The notes under the pieces were generated by a model that saw only the letters and a program-made list of their open reading frames with translations, searched no databases and was not told where the DNA came from. This document shows positions 1-8,092 of a stretch of DNA of 64,000 nt, piece by piece; positions within the stretch are counted from its first letter, which is position 1; each line of letters begins with the position of its first letter. The DNA comes from Methylosinus trichosporium OB3b (GTDB lineage: Bacteria; Pseudomonadota; Alphaproteobacteria; Rhizobiales; Beijerinckiaceae). The stretch is taken from the NCBI RefSeq assembly GCF_002752655.1, contig NZ_CP023739.1, positions 145,103-209,102 of the forward strand, given 5' to 3'. A program made the position numbers and the translations under genes.

Positions 1-179
1 GATCCGCACGGCGCCAGAGCCCGAGAGCAAGCCCATGAAGCCGCAACGAAAGGCCACAAAGCCCACACGCACCAGCATCAAGCTCCGCAGAAAAATCGCG
101 AGCTGGCAGGAGGATTATCTCGCCATCGCCTTGGGAGCCTCAGCCCGTTAACCCGGATTCGGAGCCCTGGAATGTGGGA
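1..179 (+). mobile_element. ISAs1 right end with terminal repeat and 10-bp target duplication
   Basis: Positions 145-169 hold a 25-bp terminal repeat ending in GGAGCCCTG. It matches 6754-6778 with one mismatch. The 10 bases just outside it, GAATGTGGGA at 170-179, are the exact reverse complement of the 10 bases outside the other end (TCCCACATTC, 6779-6788). This is what one insertion's target duplication looks like after the DNA between the two ends has been inverted. Positions 180-321 show no gene. Confidence 0.7.
2..151 (+). pseudogene. ISAs1-family transposase, C-terminal tail (cut by window start)
   Basis: An open frame enters from the left edge and ends at a TAA at 149-151. Its last residues (SIKLRRKIASWQEDYL) resemble the usual end of ISAs1-type transposases, a basic stretch followed by W-x(2)-DYL. 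The stop lies inside a terminal inverted repeat, as expected for the 3' end of such an element. The remainder of the gene is outside the window. The matching N-terminal piece of an ISAs1 transposase is found on the other strand at 6565-6692, so this element appears split by rearrangement. Confidence 0.55.
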
Positions 180-321
180 CGCGATCGATCGCAGCGCAGC
201 GCGGCTCGCCGAATGCGCGCAAGAGAGACGCCGTCCCTCCCGAGTGGCCAAAAGCCTGCGTTGACAGGCAAACTCATAAGCTTTAGTCAGGCCGGAGACC
301 CAGTAATGATGCAGAAGGTCG

Positions 322-3300
322 ATGAAAGTGGTCACTTATCCGTTCCGGATCAGCCAGCGTGTCGCGCAAGCCGAAGAAGGCTCAACGGGCCATTATAAAT
401 CGATCGACAACACTTACAGCATCTTTTTTAGAGAAAAAATCGACAGCAAGAGCGTCGTCATCAAGCCGACGGAACGAGGGTTCGCTCCGATCAAGAGCAC
501 CTATCTGTCGCTCGACCTGTCGAGCACGACGCACTATACGCGGCTCCAGCTTCCCGTTGATTTGAAAGATTTGATCACAGTATCCGGCTCGGATGCGGCC
601 GTCGTCGAAGTGAGCTTCTACATCGGGCCTCTGCGTGACGCCGATTCGCTCTCCTTGGTCAATATATCGATCATGGTGAATCGGGAGCGGAAGCAGTTCT
701 TTACGAAGCTCGTCGATTTCGAGAAAAATCAAACCTGGACTGGAGAGGTACGGAAAAAAGTCGCTGTCGCGCTCGATGTGAACGCCATTCCCGACGATAT
801 TCCGAGCGTGATCGTGCTTGAGTTTCCGCCCTTCACGCCGCCTTTCTATATCAGCCCTGTGTCATTGAGATTCGATTCCTCTCCCGGCAACTACACCTGT
901 GCGCCGGCGCGATACTGCCGAGCGCAAGAGTCCGATCTCGTTTGCGCCTATCTCGACATTCCGGGCGCTGCCGGCCTGTCGAATATGCAGGCGACTTCCG
1001 ACGAGGCCTCCGGCGCCTTCGCGCTTTCCGGCGTTTTCCCGCTCCCGGGCGATGATTTCCGCGGGCGGGTGCTGATCCCCATCGAGCAGCTCGCGGCCGC
1101 GACGAGCTGGCGCGCCGCCGACGTGACCCTGGAGCTGTCGCATCATGCGGAGACGTCGTCGGGCGTCGTGAACGCGGAGATCGGCGTCCTCCCCGTCGAT
1201 GTCGCCGGACATCCGATCGACAGCCCCACCTGCGAGCGACGGGCGACCATCCGCAATCTGGTTCTCTCCCGCCGCGCCACCATTTCGTTTCCGCGCGCAG
1301 AAGACAGCCTGTGCGGACACGCCATCGTCCTGGACTTCGAATCGTTTCGTGGAATCGGCGAGATACGCTTCTCCTGCACTGTGCGCGTGGCGGCCGAAGA
1401 CGCACCGGACGCAATCAAGGTCGAGGCGCAGGTCTCCGGCGCACCCGAGGCCGCCGACGTCCCCGCAATTTTCGACGGTCTGCATTATTTGGCGCAGATC
1501 GGCATCGATCCGAGCGAATTGAAAGATCTCTCCCGCCAGGAGATCCAAGCCGCGACCTGGTCTCTCTATGACCGGTCCGGCTATACGGGCTTCGCTCCGC
1601 ATCCGCTGTTTTCACCGTCCTGGTACGAGACGCAGCTCGACGCCGATGGACGACAACGACTCCCGGGCCTACGCAATCTCCTCGTCGATTATTCGACGCG
1701 GCCGGACCGATCGAGCCCGCACCCCCTGATCGACGAAGATTACGTCAATCTCCAGTATCGATTATTGTACGATGTTCCAGTGGAGTCGCGAAGCGCCATC
1801 GAGATATTGACGACCAGCGACGATTTTCGCATCGATCCGCATCGCCTGTTTTCGACGATGGATGTGGCGAAGGCGCTGAACATTCCGCCGCGCTCGCGCA
1901 AGGTCGCGGACGTGCTGCTTTGCTATCTCACCGACGAAAACGCTTGGACTATTCCGCCGTCGCCTCTGTTTCGTCCCGAACGAATCGACAGCGCGAACGA
2001 ATGCCCGCTCCTGGCCTATCTGCGCGACGCGGCGTTATGGGGGCAGTCCCCGCATCCCTTGTTCGACCCGGCCTTTTTCGCCGATCAGCCGAACGCTCCC
2101 CAAAAGCGAAACATCGCTCCGCTCGCCGCCTATCTCGCAGCAGATATAAGAGAACGATCGAATCCACATCCGCAGTTCGACACTCACTATTATGCTCTGC
2201 AATTTCCACAGATTTGGGACGGAAAAATATCCGCGCTTGAGCACTATGTCCGCACCGGCGCCGGCAATCCCAGCTCCAAATTTCAAAAGCGCTATTATCT
2301 CGCCGCCCATCCGGAAAAAGCCCTGTCCACTTCATTTTTCACCGAAGGCGGCAACGGCATAGCCTCGTTGGGCAATGGCAAATACGACGCGCCGAGGGAC
2401 ACGCTCGTCGCTGCGACGGCGAATTCGCCGGTCATCGTGCAGATGACCCCGCAAAAGCCGCGCAATCCTTATTATTCGCAGCTGCCTACCGCTTTCAAGG
2501 AAGCGGGATGGGACTTCCGATTTGCGACCGACGTCGATGCGATGGCGGATTTTTCAAAGAAGCGCAAAGGCCTGATGTTCTGGTTTCATCAGCTCGAGCC
2601 CTTCTACCACGTGTCGGGAAACGACCTCTCGACAAAAACCCGCATGGTCGGCCTGGTCAAAAACCTGTCCGCCATGCGGCAGTCTGGCAACACGGTCGTT
2701 CATACCTGGCATAATCAGATACCTTATGACGCCCGCCATTTGGACGCCGACTATGAGCTCTATTTCAAGCTCGACGAAATATTGAGCCTCATCGTGACTC
2801 ATGCCGAGCACGCCGTGCCCTGGATCCGGCAGTTCTGCCCGACGGTTCCGATTCACGTCACGCCGCATCACGGCCTCACTCATCACTTCAACACGTTCAT
2901 CGACAAGCAGGTGGCCCGCAAGATCCTGAAGCTGCCGCAAGACGCTCTCATCTTCCACCACTTCGGCGAGATAAAGCCGTATAAGAACATCGGACTCCTG
3001 CTGCGCGCCTGGCGGCGATTCCGGGACGATAGTCGATACGCGAACGCCTTCCTCATGATCACCGGTCAGTGGAAACTCCACGACGCCGAGTTTCGGGAGG
3101 CGTCCGCATTGTCGGACCTCATGCTGGTGGATCGACTCCTCAACGATGAAGAGCTCGCTCTCTACATCGCCGCCGCCGACGCCTGCGTCTTCACTCATAA
3201 GGCCGTTTGGGCCTCGGGCGCCTGCGCGACGGCCATCAGCTTCGGCAAGCCGATCATCGTGCCGACCGAGACCGGGCTCGGCAAAATCTTCGTGGACGAA

Positions 3301-3492
3301 GAGAACGGCTTCGTGTTCCCGAACAACGATGTCGAGGGACTGGTCCACACGATGAACCGGATGTGCGCGAGTTCTCTCACCCAACATATGGAATTCATGA
3401 ACAGAAGCTTGGCGGAGGAGTGGCACCCGTTTCGTCTTCAGGAACGCTATGCGAGCTTGTTCGAGAGTCTGAGGTCGACCACGGGCAAATAG
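322..3492 (+). CDS. large glycosyltransferase: N-terminal region, six HPLF-type repeats, C-terminal GT4 domain
   Basis: The protein has 1056 residues and starts at ATG 322. The C-terminal part (about residues 700-1050) looks like a GT-B fold, family 4 glycosyltransferase: it has a GEIKPYKN segment and, further on, a FGKPIIVPTETGLG nucleotide-sugar-binding region. Between about residues 420 and 620 there are six short repeats of the type PHPLF(D/S)PxxY, spaced 30-40 residues apart. Such repeats are common in bacterial rhamnan and surface-glycan glycosyltransferases. Residues 1-400 look like beta-rich, unassigned domains. There is no signal peptide or membrane segment, so it should act in the cytoplasm on nucleotide sugars. 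Another glycosyltransferase follows 120 bp downstream on the same strand, suggesting one glycan cluster. The acceptor and sugar cannot be told. Confidence 0.85.
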   Translation: MKVVTYPFRISQRVAQAEEGSTGHYKSIDNTYSIFFREKIDSKSVVIKPTERGFAPIKSTYLSLDLSSTTHYTRLQLPVDLKDLITVSGSDAAVVEVSFYIGPLRDADSLSLVNISIMVNRERKQFFTKLVDFEKNQTWTGEVRKKVAVALDVNAIPDDIPSVIVLEFPPFTPPFYISPVSLRFDSSPGNYTCAPARYCRAQESDLVCAYLDIPGAAGLSNMQATSDEASGAFALSGVFPLPGDDFRGRVLIPIEQLAAATSWRAADVTLELSHHAETSSGVVNAEIGVLPVDVAGHPIDSPTCERRATIRNLVLSRRATISFPRAEDSLCGHAIVLDFESFRGIGEIRFSCTVRVAAEDAPDAIKVEAQVSGAPEAADVPAIFDGLHYLAQIGIDPSELKDLSRQEIQAATWSLYDRSGYTGFAPHPLFSPSWYETQLDADGRQRLPGLRNLLVDYSTRPDRSSPHPLIDEDYVNLQYRLLYDVPVESRSAIEILTTSDDFRIDPHRLFSTMDVAKALNIPPRSRKVADVLLCYLTDENAWTIPPSPLFRPERIDSANECPLLAYLRDAALWGQSPHPLFDPAFFADQPNAPQKRNIAPLAAYLAADIRERSNPHPQFDTHYYALQFPQIWDGKISALEHYVRTGAGNPSSKFQKRYYLAAHPEKALSTSFFTEGGNGIASLGNGKYDAPRDTLVAATANSPVIVQMTPQKPRNPYYSQLPTAFKEAGWDFRFATDVDAMADFSKKRKGLMFWFHQLEPFYHVSGNDLSTKTRMVGLVKNLSAMRQSGNTVVHTWHNQIPYDARHLDADYELYFKLDEILSLIVTHAEHAVPWIRQFCPTVPIHVTPHHGLTHHFNTFIDKQVARKILKLPQDALIFHHFGEIKPYKNIGLLLRAWRRFRDDSRYANAFLMITGQWKLHDAEFREASALSDLMLVDRLLNDEELALYIAAADACVFTHKAVWASGACATAISFGKPIIVPTETGLGKIFVDEENGFVFPNNDVEGLVHTMNRMCASSLTQHMEFMNRSLAEEWHPFRLQERYASLFESLRSTTGK

Positions 3493-3612
3493 GCTCGGGC
3501 TGGCGCTTCGCCGCAGGGCCTCCGGGCGCTGTCGAAGGGCCATTGTATGGCGACGCGTCGACGAGGCTGCGTGCGAGAGCCATGCGCCGCATCCATGGAC
3601 GGAGGGTTGAAG

Positions 3613-5553
3613 GTGGAGCAAACGGGCATGGATGCCGAAAATGAGAATGCGGTTCAGCAAACGCCCGCTCCGATCGGCGGCGCGCCCGGGCGTCCGCTGT
3701 CCATCGACATCATTATACCCGTATACAATGCTCTCGATCAGGTGCGCGAGTGCATCAAGAGCGTCGTCGCCCACCGTGACGACCTCGTCAATGTGATCGT
3801 CGTCAATGACGCGAGCCATCCGCATGTGGGCGAATGGCTCGACGCCGAACACGCCGGCACGATTCGCTGCACGATCATTCACAAGGAGCAGAACGAAGGC
3901 TATCTGAAGGCGATCAATCAAGGGTTGGAGCTGTCGAAGGCGGATATCGTGATCTGCCAGAACTCGGACACGATCATCTTCGAGAATTTTTTCGATATCG
4001 TCAGAGCTCTGTTCCAGTCCGACCCTAAAATCGCAGTCATCAACCCGGTGTCCGTCTGGGCCAATTGGACACGCATTCCGTTTCCGTCCGGGCATACGGT
4101 GTTTTCGCTGGCGGACAGACTGTGGCGGGCCAATGGTCTCAGCGTCCGCGATATCCAGAACGCGTCGGGCTTCTGTTTTGCGGTTCGCGGCGAGGCGCTG
4201 CTGCGCCTGGGCTCGTTCGATCCGGTCTATGATCCCGGCTATTGGGAAGAAACCGATTTCTGCATGAAGGTTTTGGACGCCGGCTTGCGCGTCGTCTGCG
4301 CGCCGGGGCTGTTCGTCTTTCATCACGGCTGGTCCTCATTCGGGGCCGACGCCCGCAACATGAACATGGAGAAGAACGAACGCATTTTCCGCAGCCGATG
4401 GGGTGAGCAATTTTCGGCTCTCGAAAAATGGTTCAAATTCAATGACCCTCTGCGCGGGCTCAAGAACGAGCTCGCTTGCACTGACAGCGCCGTCGATAAC
4501 GTCTATGCGCGAAGCGCCGCCGCAGACGGATTGTCTGTTCTCTATATCTTGCCGTCATTGGCGCATTACGGAGGGATCATCTCCGTCATTCAGGTGGTGA
4601 ACCGCCTCGTCATGCAGGGCGTGCGCGCGAATATCGCGGTGACGAAGGCAGGGGACAAATCGGTCCTGCGCTATTGCGCCTGCTACTTCAATCCACTCTT
4701 CTTCGAGAACGAGGCCGAGCTGATCCAGAATTGTCCGCAGGTCGATGTCGTCGTCGCGACTCATTGGACGACCGCCTATTCGGCGATCAAATTGACCAAT
4801 GTCGGCAAGGCGAAGCGGGCCGCCTATTTCGTGCAGGATTACGAGCCCGATTTTCATACCGATGATCCGATGCGGGCCCGGCTGGCCGAGGCGACCTATA
4901 AATTGATCAGCGACCGCATCTGCAAGACCAGCTGGCTGAAGGAGAAGCTCGACGCCTATGGCGGCGACACCGAGATCATTCCGATCGGCCTCAACACGGA
5001 TATCTTCGCCGACTATCGGCAGCCGCGCGAAAACCTCGTCCTCACCATGGCGAGGCCCTCCTCGGCCCGGCGAAACTGGCCGACCGCGCTCAAAGCCTTC
5101 AGGATATTGGCCGAAATTCGTCCCGATATAGCGCTCGGCGTCTATGGCTCGAATTTCAAACCGGGCGAGCTGCCGCCCAGCATCACGAGCTATGGCCTCT
5201 TGGAGAGCGCATCTAGCGTCGCGAGAATGCTCAATCGTGCGAAAGTGCTGCTCGACGCGTCGACGTTTCAGGGCTTCGGGCGCCCCGGCCTCGAGGCCAT
5301 CGCCTGCGGCGTCGCGCCGGTTCTCACCAAGAACGGCGGCATCACCTCCTATGCAAAGCACATGCACAATGCACTGCTGATCAATCCGTTCGACGTCGGC
5401 GAGATCGTGACCTCGATCTGCCGCATCATCGACGACGAGCCGCTCTATGAGCGGCTGCGGACGAATGGCAAAGGACTGTCGGCGAATTACACGTTGGATC
5501 GCGAAGGCGCACAGACGCGGGTGTTCCTGGAACGTGTGCTGAGGAACGGCTGA
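3613..5553 (+). CDS. bifunctional glycosyltransferase (GT2 + GT4)
   Basis: About 646 residues from the preferred GTG start at 3613, which has GGAGGG at 3601-3606. An ATG at 3547 is in frame but lacks a good ribosome site. The N-terminal half is a GT-A, family 2 domain: it begins SIDIIIPVYNALDQ, has a VVNDAS nucleotide motif, a NSDT segment in the DxD position and WEETDFC as the acceptor/base region. The C-terminal half is a GT-B, family 4 domain with GFGRPGLEAIACG near the end, the usual E-x7-E-like donor-sugar motif. Two transferases in one chain often add successive sugars to a growing glycan. It probably works with the gene at 322. Confidence 0.88.
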   Translation: MEQTGMDAENENAVQQTPAPIGGAPGRPLSIDIIIPVYNALDQVRECIKSVVAHRDDLVNVIVVNDASHPHVGEWLDAEHAGTIRCTIIHKEQNEGYLKAINQGLELSKADIVICQNSDTIIFENFFDIVRALFQSDPKIAVINPVSVWANWTRIPFPSGHTVFSLADRLWRANGLSVRDIQNASGFCFAVRGEALLRLGSFDPVYDPGYWEETDFCMKVLDAGLRVVCAPGLFVFHHGWSSFGADARNMNMEKNERIFRSRWGEQFSALEKWFKFNDPLRGLKNELACTDSAVDNVYARSAAADGLSVLYILPSLAHYGGIISVIQVVNRLVMQGVRANIAVTKAGDKSVLRYCACYFNPLFFENEAELIQNCPQVDVVVATHWTTAYSAIKLTNVGKAKRAAYFVQDYEPDFHTDDPMRARLAEATYKLISDRICKTSWLKEKLDAYGGDTEIIPIGLNTDIFADYRQPRENLVLTMARPSSARRNWPTALKAFRILAEIRPDIALGVYGSNFKPGELPPSITSYGLLESASSVARMLNRAKVLLDASTFQGFGRPGLEAIACGVAPVLTKNGGITSYAKHMHNALLINPFDVGEIVTSICRIIDDEPLYERLRTNGKGLSANYTLDREGAQTRVFLERVLRNG

Positions 5554-5591
5554 CCGCTCGATGACGTCTGACGAGGGGAAGGAGCTTTCCC

Positions 5592-5657
5592 ATGAATCTT
5601 ACCGTCGCGCGGAAGCCCAAATGGCTTTCGCGGCGACTGAACCGCGCCTATTCGTGA
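5592..5657 (+). CDS. very small ORF (21 aa) or start of a lost gene
   Basis: ATG 5592 is preceded by a strong ribosome-binding stretch (GGGGAAGGAG, 5575-5584) and opens a 21-codon basic frame that stops at 5655-5657, just before the IS6 debris. The good ribosome site suggests that a real gene once began here, or that a short leader is made. No similarity is recognised. Confidence 0.3.
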   Translation: MNLTVARKPKWLSRRLNRAYS

Positions 5658-5670
5658 CTGCGCGTCTTTT

Positions 5671-5747
5671 GGCTCTGTCGCAAATTTTGTTTATGGACGC
5701 GATGAGCGTGTGAGAGTGACGCGGCTCACGCCGCGAGGGCATAGAAC
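5671..5747 (-). mobile_element. remnant of an IS6-family right end
   Basis: These 77 bp repeat, in inverse orientation, the right terminus of the IS6 copy that follows: the first 48 bp match 6517-6564 with two mismatches, and the next part matches the 3' end of its transposase gene. It abuts the complete copy directly. It is probably a leftover of an earlier inverted insertion or of a replicative rearrangement. Confidence 0.7.
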
Positions 5748-6564
5748 GGCTCTGTCGCAAATGGTTCTGTCGCGAATTTTTTACCGCGGGTCGGTTGGGG
5801 CTATGATCGGTGGCAGTGGAGCTGGCGGACGTGTGCGATGATCGATTTCAAGGGCAGCCATTTTGAACGCGACGTGATCCTGTGGAGCGTCCGCTGGTAT
5901 GTGGCGTATCCCATGAGCTATCGCCAGCTCGAAGAAATGATGGAAGAGCGCGGCGTCGAAGTCGACCATTCCACGCTCAACCGCTGGGTCGTCAAGTATG
6001 CGCCTTTGCTGGAAAATCAGTTCCGTGCTCGCAAGCGCGCGATCGGATCCAGCTGGCGTCTCGATGAGACCTACGTGAAAGTCAAAGGCTGCTGGAAATA
6101 TCTATATCGGGCGGTCGACAAGGTAGGCGCGACGGTGGATTTCCTGCTGACGGCCAAGAGGGACTGCAAAGCCGCGCTGCGCTTTTTGCGCAAGGCGATC
6201 GGCCAGCATGGCGAGCCGGAGAAGATCACGATCGACAAGAGCGGCGCCAACACGGCAGCGATCGAACGCTACAATGCGGAGCATGGAGCCGACATCGAAA
6301 TCCGCCGCATCAAATATCTCAATAATATCGTCGAACAGGACCATCGAGCGGTGAAGCGAGTAACGCGGCCGATGTTGGGTTTCAAATCATTTCGATCCGC
6401 TGCTGCGACACTCTCGGGGATCGAGCTCATGCATATGATCCGAAAGGACCAGTTGCAGACCACGGGCAAATTGCGTCCAGCACAGCAGTTCTACGCCCTC
6501 GCCGCGTGATCTGAAACACTCTCATACGCTCGTCGCGTCCATAAACAAAATTTGCGACAGAGCC
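5748..6564 (+). mobile_element. IS6-family insertion sequence, copy A
   Basis: About 817 bp bounded by GGCTCTGTCGCAAAT at 5748-5762 and its inverse at 6550-6564. It contains one transposase gene. The second copy at 29026-29827 is nearly identical inside but begins at the equivalent of 5763, so this copy has 15 extra bp on its left. The right end sits directly inside an ISAs1 transposase gene (6565 onward). IS6 elements move by cointegrate formation and can cause inversions, which fits the surroundings. Confidence 0.8.
5838..6509 (+). CDS. IS6-family transposase (copy A)
   Basis: A 223-residue DDE transposase starting MIDFKGSHFERD. It has the YPMSYRQLEEMM helix-turn-helix region, then the catalytic signature: D in RLDETYVKVKG (about residue 77), D in TIDKSGAN (about 137) and E in NNIVEQDHR (about 172). 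Length and motifs are normal for the family, so it is probably active. It differs from the copy at 29101 at a modest number of residues. Confidence 0.92.
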   Translation: MIDFKGSHFERDVILWSVRWYVAYPMSYRQLEEMMEERGVEVDHSTLNRWVVKYAPLLENQFRARKRAIGSSWRLDETYVKVKGCWKYLYRAVDKVGATVDFLLTAKRDCKAALRFLRKAIGQHGEPEKITIDKSGANTAAIERYNAEHGADIEIRRIKYLNNIVEQDHRAVKRVTRPMLGFKSFRSAAATLSGIELMHMIRKDQLQTTGKLRPAQQFYALAA

Positions 6565-6692
6565 AGCAGCAGCACCTCGCGAAGCGGATGCGCGACGCGC
6601 CAGGGCTCGCGCGGGTCGTCGATGATCGAGAAATGGTCGAGAAGCGCCTTCAGACGCGACTTCTCTTTGAAAACGGCGAAGGCGAGGCTCAT
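6565..6692 (-). pseudogene. ISAs1-family transposase, N-terminal fragment
   Basis: From ATG 6692 the minus strand encodes about 43 residues, including LLDHFSIIDDPREPWRV and HPLREVLLL, the characteristic start of ISAs1 (H-repeat type) transposases. The frame then runs into the IS6 terminal repeat. The missing middle of the gene should lie left of position 1 if the inversion model is right. Confidence 0.7.
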
Positions 6693-6788
6693 GACGGCGG
6701 CTCCAGAATCACTCCGCCCACAGGAAATCACCCCGCGCGCAATCCGTTAACCGCCGTTAACCCGAATTCGGAGCCCTGTCCCACATTC
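6565..6788 (-). mobile_element. ISAs1 left end, truncated by IS6, with target duplication
   Basis: The terminal repeat at 6754-6778 (outer end CAGGGCTCCGAATTCGGG read outward-in) is followed by TCCCACATTC at 6779-6788. This is the inverse of the 10 bp beside the other ISAs1 end at 170-179. The inner side is cut at 6564/6565 by IS6 copy A. A second GTTAAC lies just inside the repeat. Confidence 0.7.
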
Positions 6789-6865: not shown

Positions 6866-8092
6866 ATGGTGGATTACCCGACCGACTTTGCAATCCCTCA
6901 GCCGAGCGGAACGTTCGGCGCTTATTGCGCCGGGGGGCATCGGGATGTCGAGGGGTGGCTGGAGCCCAGCATTCTCACCGCGATCACCGGCTTTATCGCC
7001 TTCCAGCGCGCCGCCGGTCTGCCCGCCACCTTTGCGGAGATCGGAGTTCATCACGGGCGCTTCTATCTCGGCCTCGCGCTCGCCATGGGAGCGTCGAGTC
7101 GCGGCGTCGCTATCGACGTCTTCGAGGCGCAGCATCTCAATCCGGACGGCTCGGGCAAGGGCAATCGCCAAGCGTTCGTCTCGAACATGGCGCGCTTGAA
7201 CGTCGCGGCGGATCGACAGACCATCATCGCCCACGACAGCCGATTGGTGTCGCCGCAACAAGTGATTTCCGCGCTCGGCGGTCAGCACGTGTCAATCTTC
7301 AGCGTCGATGGCGCGCATACGGTCGAATATACGATATCGGATCTCGAGCTCGCGGCCGCGACGATCGCGGAATGCGGGATCATCATCGTCGACGACCTGT
7401 TCAATGCGCGCTGGCCTGGCGTCATCGACGGCGTGCTGCAGTGGCTTCGGTCCAAGGCCGGCACATTCGAAATGGTCGTCTATGGCGACAACAAGGGCTT
7501 CATCGCGCGAAGCGCGGTCGCTTCCGCCTATCGTCAGATGCTGGTTTCGGGTCCGGCGCGGCGGTTCGGCGCCTTCCATCCCGTCGTCTTTGCGGGACGC
7601 CCCTCGCTGTTCGCGCGTTTTGCAGACCCGCGCGCCGCCTTTCCGCTGGGCTCAGACGCCGAGGGCGCGCCCGAGGGGCGCGTGGACTTCTGCAAGGGCG
7701 GCGCGGGCGCGCCGTTGCTCGGAGAGGGATGGGCAATGCCCGAGAAAGGCGGCGTCTGGTCGATCCGGCGGGAGGCGAAGGTCGCGCTGCCGACGAGCTA
7801 TGTCGCTCGCGCCGCCACTCCGCTGACGATCACTTTGCAGGCGTTCGTGCCCGACGGAGAGACGCAACGCCTCACCGTCTCGGCCGGCGGCCGCAGCGTG
7901 TTTTCCGAGGGCGTCAAGACGGGCGTTCACACGATCATGCTCGGCCGTGAGGAACTAAAGCGAGCAGGAGCGCAAGGGGCCGAGCGCATCGAGCTGACCT
8001 TCGGGGTCGAGCGTCTGTTCATTCCGAGCGCTTTCAGCCTCGGCTCGGATAACCGCGAGCTCGGCATCAGGCTCGTCTGCTGCGACGCCTGA
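6866..8092 (+). CDS. class I SAM-dependent methyltransferase with C-terminal beta-rich module
   Basis: The protein has 408 residues and starts at ATG 6866, behind GAGGA. Residues about 50-210 form a Methyltransf_24-like Rossmann domain: FAEIGVHHGRFYLGLA is the glycine-rich SAM loop, VAIDVFEAQ the acidic motif II and IIIVDDLFN the later strand. The last 120 residues contain GWAMPEKGGVWS, a motif also seen in the N-terminal domain of the glycosyltransferase at 25630, and may bind carbohydrate. It is likely to methylate a sugar or the end of a glycan chain. It is followed 116 bp later by another methyltransferase on the same strand. Confidence 0.8.
   Translation: MVDYPTDFAIPQPSGTFGAYCAGGHRDVEGWLEPSILTAITGFIAFQRAAGLPATFAEIGVHHGRFYLGLALAMGASSRGVAIDVFEAQHLNPDGSGKGNRQAFVSNMARLNVAADRQTIIAHDSRLVSPQQVISALGGQHVSIFSVDGAHTVEYTISDLELAAATIAECGIIIVDDLFNARWPGVIDGVLQWLRSKAGTFEMVVYGDNKGFIARSAVASAYRQMLVSGPARRFGAFHPVVFAGRPSLFARFADPRAAFPLGSDAEGAPEGRVDFCKGGAGAPLLGEGWAMPEKGGVWSIRREAKVALPTSYVARAATPLTITLQAFVPDGETQRLTVSAGGRSVFSEGVKTGVHTIMLGREELKRAGAQGAERIELTFGVERLFIPSAFSLGSDNRELGIRLVCCDA

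What the first reader, a model, noticed from the sequence alone, without database searches (positions are those of the whole stretch)
145..6788. One ISAs1 insertion torn apart by an inversion, with its target duplication now in opposite orientation
The ISAs1 right end (145-169) and left end (6754-6778) carry the same 25-bp terminal repeat with one mismatch. The 10 bp beside them, GAATGTGGGA (170-179) and TCCCACATTC (6779-6788), are exact reverse complements. In a simple insertion they would be direct repeats. An inversion with one breakpoint inside the element explains this. IS6 copy A cuts the ISAs1 gene exactly at 6564/6565, and IS6 is known to make inversions by replicative intramolecular transposition. 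The glycosyltransferase genes at 322-5553 would be the inverted cargo.
Basis: partly seen in the sequence, partly recalled or inferred. Interest (0 to 1): 0.7.

Follow-up and report, generated by a model that had tools for sequence, protein, structure and literature searches.

The report
ISAs1 element split by IS6-bounded inversion
On a plasmid of the methane-eating bacterium Methylosinus trichosporium OB3b, one jumping gene was cut in two and its parts turned against each other by an inversion with a copy of a second jumping gene at each end; it is a well-preserved trace of a known kind of DNA rearrangement, not a new mechanism.

Summary
The two ISAs1 ends (145-169, 6754-6778) point the same way and their outer 10-bp flanks are reverse complements. 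Of 22 ISAs1 ends found in this genome, 8 pairs share such a flank: 7 are the two ends of intact copies, the eighth is this pair. One insertion was split and one part turned round. Left of position 1, ISAs1 continues into its transposase gene and stops at an IS6 copy in opposite orientation (C3:143722-144523) that differs from the window copy at 1 of 802 bases; the other full-length copies listed are at most 93% identical. A second assembly of the strain agrees. Two corrections: ISAs1 residues 215-568 (354 bp) are missing and no 8-bp IS6 duplication links the breakpoints, so one clean IS6 event is not enough; a later IS6-adjacent deletion is the simplest addition. And "inverted cargo" is not established: two distant relatives carry GT1-GT2-methyltransferase in the order OB3b has now, while the ISAs1 duplication demands that GT1 and the methyltransferase gene once stood head to head. 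Ordinary IS6-type remodelling, well preserved.

The parts
1..169 (+). Right part of the split ISAs1 element (residues 569-1316 in all, continuing left of the window to C3:144524), ending in the terminal repeat 145-169
   Evidence: 748 bp alignable without gaps to 8 intact 1316-bp copies, 715-717 of 748 identical; transposase part matches NF033564 positions 158-314
170..179 (+). 10-bp target duplication GAATGTGGGA of the ISAs1 right end
   Evidence: exact reverse complement of 6779-6788; 10 bp is the duplication length of the 7 paired intact copies
322..3492 (+). GT1, glycosyltransferase, 1056 aa, between the two IS6 copies
   Evidence: PF00534/PF13692; open frame
3547..5553 (+). GT2, two-domain glycosyltransferase (start 3547, 3616 or later), between the two IS6 copies
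   Evidence: PF00535 and PF00534; open frame
5561..5670 (+). start of an open frame after GT2, cut off by IS6 sequence
   Evidence: translation
5671..5762 (-). remnants of other IS6 ends: 77 bp of a right end (5671-5747) and a 15-bp end (5748-5762)
   Evidence: 87% to the IS6 right end; end motifs at 5671, 5748 and 5763
5763..6564 (+). IS6 copy at the right breakpoint, 802 bp, transposase 5838-6509 (223 aa)
   Evidence: NF033587; 1 of 802 bases differs from the inverted copy C3:143722-144523
6565..6778 (-). Left part of the split ISAs1 element (residues 214-1, reversed), ending in the terminal repeat 6754-6778
   Evidence: 199-202 of 214 positions identical to 8 intact copies without gaps, about 94% with gaps
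6779..6788 (-). 10-bp target duplication of the ISAs1 left end, now in opposite orientation (TCCCACATTC)
6866..8092 (+). MT1, methyltransferase gene whose upstream region carries the ISAs1 left-end flank
   Evidence: PF13578

Best explanation
A 1316-bp ISAs1 element inserted once on this plasmid, making a 10-bp duplication, between the upstream regions of GT1 and MT1, which then stood head to head (shown by the matching flanks). An IS6 copy elsewhere on the same plasmid then transposed replicatively within the molecule into ISAs1. This copied the IS6 and turned the DNA between the two IS6 copies (now 6341 bp, C3:144524-150864), leaving one IS6 at each breakpoint in opposite orientation and parting the two ISAs1 ends (IS6 at both breakpoints and their near-identity are shown; the replicative step is inferred). 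A later deletion beside one IS6 copy took 354 bp of ISAs1 and with it the 8-bp mark of the IS6 event (loss shown, cause inferred). GT1 and GT2 keep open frames; the ISAs1 transposase gene is broken.
For: Matching 10-bp flanks, 1 of only 8 matching pairs among 231. IS6 copy on the minus strand exactly at the other ISAs1 break, C3:143722-144523. The two IS6 copies differ at 1 of 802 bases, while the 14 other near-full-length copies listed are at most 93% identical (40 of 94 first-look candidates were scored); replication within the plasmid yields just such a pair of inverted copies. Another IS6 pair of this genome, C4:86846-87649 and 95626-96429, identical over 804 bp and in opposite orientation, carries the inverted 8-bp mark CCGGGCCA / TGGCCCGG. 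Same arrangement over 40,786 bp in a second assembly of the strain. Published parallel: a 3.1-kb IS26 inversion argued from variant bases shared by both IS26 copies, with later IS26-adjacent deletions (PMC5400096, passages).
Against: ISAs1 residues 215-568 are missing, so the two pieces do not overlap by 8 bp. No shared 6-mer or longer between the IS6 flanks. Two distant relatives have GT1-GT2-methyltransferase in one direction, as OB3b has now, so the head-to-head stage that the duplication demands is not the order seen there. No near relative with the uninverted order was found.
Confidence: 0.7

Rival explanations
1. The inversion is real but ran by homologous recombination, or by the conservative IS6 reaction, between two IS6 copies already present in inverse orientation, one inside ISAs1 and one at the other end; the segment may flip repeatedly.
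For: 802 bp of near-identical inverted sequence; no 8-bp mark at the breakpoints; the present gene order resembles distant relatives, as after a second flip; in PMC5400096 both orientations of such a segment were seen by PCR (passages).
Against: A second IS6 copy of the same variant must first have arisen inside the plasmid, and replicative transposition within one molecule would itself give an inversion or a deletion (established for IS26; inference here). Both assemblies show one orientation.
Confidence: 0.22
2. The cluster has been turned more than once: GT1-GT2-MT1 in one direction first, then a head-to-head stage in which ISAs1 landed, then back by IS6. This is an addition to, not a replacement of, the ISAs1 split.
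For: Of 11 loci with a GT2 relative, 6 have a GT1-like gene just before GT2 on the same strand, 2 an MT1-like and 1 an MT2-like gene right after it. Stacked IS6 remnants at 5671-5762 point to repeated events.
Against: MT1 likeness in those loci is 36-37% over about half of the protein, so the gene there need not be the same one; gene order in sugar clusters is fluid (general knowledge).
Confidence: 0.35
3. Chance match, two unrelated ISAs1 fragments, or an assembly error.
For: 6 of 22 ISAs1 ends have no partner flank, so fragments exist. The genome paper reports manual work on one unitig (whole text of PMC5721141).
Against: p about 1.7e-6 for this pair; the match has exactly the length of the 7 other pairs; a second assembly agrees.
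Confidence: 0.02

Closest known systems
IS26 (IS6 family) intramolecular replicative inversion, e.g. the 3.1-kb inversion beside AbGRI3 (PMC5400096, passages) and the inverted 42.7-kb block of pLSP 40/13-1 (PMC11047700, passages)
   Same: Inverted segment bounded by two IS6-family copies in opposite orientation that share the same variant sequence; later deletions beside the IS copies (PMC5400096).
   Different: No 8-bp duplication survives here; the proof comes from the split 10-bp duplication of a bystander ISAs1 element.
IS6 pair at C4:86846-87649 / 95626-96429 of the same genome
   Same: Opposite orientation, identical copies.
   Different: Retains an inverted 8-bp mark on one pair of flanks.
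IS copies without matching flanks, explained by recombination or adjacent deletion (PMC11708052, abstract only)
   Same: Lost or separated duplications as traces of rearrangement.
   Different: Here the partner flank was found 6.6 kb away in the opposite sense.

Membership tests
ISAs1 family insertion (the split element) | ISAs1-type transposase | tested here: met
   NF033564 in the intact copy (357.8 bits) and in the right part left of the window (171.8 bits, cut-off 70)
ISAs1 family insertion (the split element) | terminal inverted repeats and a 10-bp target duplication as in the other copies of this genome | tested here: met
   25-bp repeats with one mismatch; 10-bp duplication perfect but now in opposite sense
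IS6 family (copies at the breakpoints) | IS6-type transposase and short terminal inverted repeats | tested here: met
   NF033587 in both copies; ends GGTTCTGTCGCGAA and GGCTCTGTCGCAAA
IS6-mediated replicative inversion | two copies of one IS6 variant in opposite orientation at the two breakpoints | tested here: met
   1 of 802 bases differs, opposite strands; other full-length copies listed at most 93%
IS6-mediated replicative inversion | 8-bp target duplication in inverted orientation at the breakpoints | tested here: not met
   no match of 6 bp or more between flanks; none at 8 bp with up to 1 mismatch. A later deletion of 354 bp of ISAs1 could have removed it (inference)
IS6-mediated replicative inversion | uninverted order in a relative | tested here: inconclusive
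   no near relative holds the cluster; distant ones have the order that OB3b has now
Reversible (flipping) segment | both orientations in one culture | not testable with these tools
   no reads held; two assemblies show one orientation

The most novel reading that the evidence does not exclude
The 6.3-kb glycosyltransferase segment between the inverted IS6 copies is reversible and has flipped at least twice (one-direction order, head-to-head stage in which ISAs1 landed, and back), so that GT1-GT2 are by turns joined to or parted from the methyltransferase genes: a crude IS-borne switch of a surface-sugar cluster.
Probability: 0.1. Interest if true: 0.5.

Novelty: new member of a known kind. 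Interest (0 to 1): 0.25.

Why it matters
The split duplication of a bystander element proves an IS6-bounded inversion after IS6's own 8-bp mark has gone, a handle that could be used on other IS-rich plasmids.

Tried and rejected
Near relatives for the uninverted order: GT1 (47 of 150 genomes with any match at E 1e-3, the own included, and no full-length match but the own; 2 of 397 at E 1e-25, the own and one of 29% over 299 residues); GT2 (8 of 150 at E 1e-30, the own included, the others 31-35% over the first domain); MT1 (13 of 150 at E 1e-15, the own included, the others at most 40% over at most 248 residues). Plasmid records: 17 records, 1 covering at least 80% of the query, the strain's own; the other rows listed match the IS elements; 16 records, 15 under 60% identity; 19, 18 under 60%; 220, 219 under 60%. 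Viral contigs: no relative of GT1.

Withdrawn: I first took the apparent lack of a near GT2 relative on the 8654-bp contig as a sign that GT1 and MT1 are neighbours without GT2 there (note). GT2 is better conserved than GT1 among relatives (best other hits 60% against 33%, leaving out the 88% GT1), so a near GT2 could be hidden in the 90% cluster of the OB3b protein (P0028: 4 members, 12 contigs). That P0001 and P0004 share a contig rests only on equal contig length.

Rejected: a single clean IS6 inversion (354 bp missing, no 8-bp match); recombination between two whole ISAs1 copies (the pieces are complementary parts that end at IS6); chance; assembly error.

Full report
WHERE IT IS. The window is C3:145103-209102 of a genome of 5,183,433 bases in 4 contigs. 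The sizes equal those published for Methylosinus trichosporium OB3b (chromosome 4,508,832 bp; plasmids 285,280, 209,102 and 180,219 bp; whole text of PMC5721141). The same DNA stands in a second assembly, plasmid pOB3b_02, NZ_CP119871.1; 40,786 bp around the locus align in one piece with 1 mismatch and 3 gap openings. An assembly error is therefore unlikely, although the 2017 paper reports a manual break and reassembly of one unitig.

THE OBSERVATION. From the matches of two DNA searches of the own genome (in which 40 of 91 and 40 of 148 first-look candidates were scored) I fetched 11 stretches and found 22 ISAs1 ends in them and the window: 8 intact 1316-bp copies, the window pair and 4 single ends. 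Of all 231 pairs of outward 10-bp flanks, exactly 8 match with 2 mismatches or fewer, and all 8 are perfect; 7 are the two ends of an intact copy, the eighth is the window pair. Against a tidy picture: one intact copy, C4:97075-98390, has unmatched flanks, so with two single ends on C1 and two on C2 6 of 22 ends are unpaired. The chance of a 10-bp match for two random flanks is about 1.7e-6. The split duplication is real and has the length usual for this element in this genome.

LEFT OF THE WINDOW. The ISAs1 right part runs back from 169 to C3:144524, residue 569 of the intact element; it holds the end of the transposase frame (NF033564 from profile position 158). There it meets an IS6 copy on the minus strand, C3:143722-144523. 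The window's IS6 copy, 5763-6564 on the plus strand, differs from it at 1 of 802 bases. One search lists 36 matches to it in the genome (40 of 94 first-look candidates scored): 16 are near full length, and the 14 other than this pair are at most 93% identical; shorter pieces reach 94% (628 and 331 bp), 95% (166 bp) and 96% (28 bp). So the two copies at the breakpoints are by far each other's nearest full-length relatives among those listed.

WHAT DOES NOT FIT ONE STEP. The window's IS6 meets ISAs1 residue 214, the other copy meets residue 569; the 354 bp between are gone. A single replicative inversion would split ISAs1 with an 8-bp overlap. The IS6 flanks share no 6-mer or longer within 20 bases, in either sense. 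Yet IS6 in this genome can leave the textbook mark: the pair at C4:86846-87649 and 95626-96429, identical over 804 bp and in opposite orientation, is preceded by CCGGGCCA and TGGCCCGG. It is the only exact 8-bp pair among 98 end-like places compared, many of which are chance matches to the loose end pattern; 4 further pairs match with 1 mismatch and none of the 5 joins the two ends of one IS6 copy, so copies without a direct duplication are the rule here and the lack of one at this locus says little. IS6-adjacent deletion is the simplest cause of both the 354-bp loss and the missing mark. At 5671-5762 ends of other IS6 elements are stacked, a sign of repeated events at this spot.

MECHANISM. 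Shown: one ISAs1 insertion; its parts in opposed sense; near-identical IS6 copies in opposite orientation at both breakpoints; a loss of 354 bp. Inferred: that IS6 made the inversion by intramolecular replicative transposition (0.7, against 0.22 for recombination or conservative exchange between IS6 copies), and that a second IS6 step made the loss. Literature seen: passages of PMC5400096 describe a 3.1-kb IS26 inversion argued from two variant bases shared by both IS26 copies, later IS26-adjacent deletions, and both orientations seen by PCR; passages of PMC11047700 describe an inverted 42.7-kb block between oppositely oriented IS26 copies with an inverted 8-bp duplication; the abstract of PMC11708052 names recombination between copies and adjacent deletion as frequent causes of missing duplications.

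GENE ORDER: A TENSION. The duplication requires that, when ISAs1 inserted, the upstream regions of GT1 (322-3492) and MT1 (6866-8092) were neighbours, with the genes head to head. Now they stand GT1-GT2-IS6-MT1-MT2 in one direction. In the 11 loci with a GT2 relative found, a GT1-like gene precedes GT2 on the same strand in 6 (L120-L124, L126), lies on the other strand in 3 (L127-L129) and is not found in 2 (L125, L130; L130 is only 4003 bp long); an MT1-like gene follows GT2 directly in 2 (L120 Eilatimonas milleporae, L123 a Hyphomonadaceae MAG) and an MT2-like gene in 1 (L126). The present OB3b order thus resembles some distant relatives, and the head-to-head stage may itself have been derived. 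The MT1 likeness there is 36-37% over about half of the protein. The nearest known relatives of GT1 and MT1 (P0001, 88%; P0004, 89%) are both listed on a JGI contig of 8654 bp, perhaps the same one; I could not read it, and an argument from the apparent lack of GT2 on it is withdrawn (see Tried and rejected). So I do not call the glycosyltransferase genes the inverted part; on a circular plasmid only the relative turn is shown.

NOVELTY. This is a new example of IS6-type remodelling, with the useful twist that a bystander's duplication proves the inversion. Two paper searches on the strain (listings, and of the listed papers only PMC5721141 read) showed no title on this rearrangement; that does not prove that nobody has noted it. 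The age of the steps, present-day flipping, and any effect on the sugar cluster remain untested.

Noticed in passing
G000 C4:86846-87649 and 95626-96429 (L084, L083): Two identical 804-bp IS6 copies in opposite orientation, preceded by CCGGGCCA and TGGCCCGG: the inverted 8-bp mark of an IS6 inversion of about 8 kb on the 180-kb plasmid.
   Followed up: partly
window 5671-5762: Stacked ends of other IS6 elements (77 bp and 15 bp) just before the intact IS6 copy, one of them 87% like the IS6 right end.
   Followed up: partly
window 5561-5670: An open frame starts 8 bp after the stop codon of GT2 and is cut off by IS6 sequence: a gene start whose remainder was not found.
   Followed up: no
G000 C4:97075-98390 (L026): A complete ISAs1 copy whose two 10-bp flanks do not match and which abuts IS6 pieces at 98392-99200: another rearranged copy.
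   Followed up: no
G000 C2:138008 and 140167 (L035): Two ISAs1 ends pointing the same way 2.1 kb apart, as in the window, but with unmatched flanks.
   Followed up: no
L025:15001-17760 (C3:141000-143759) against L025:5301-7200: A diverged second copy of the region annotated as DUF1403 and ScpB genes lies beside the left IS6 copy (72% over 774 bases; annotation).
   Followed up: partly
   Followed up: no
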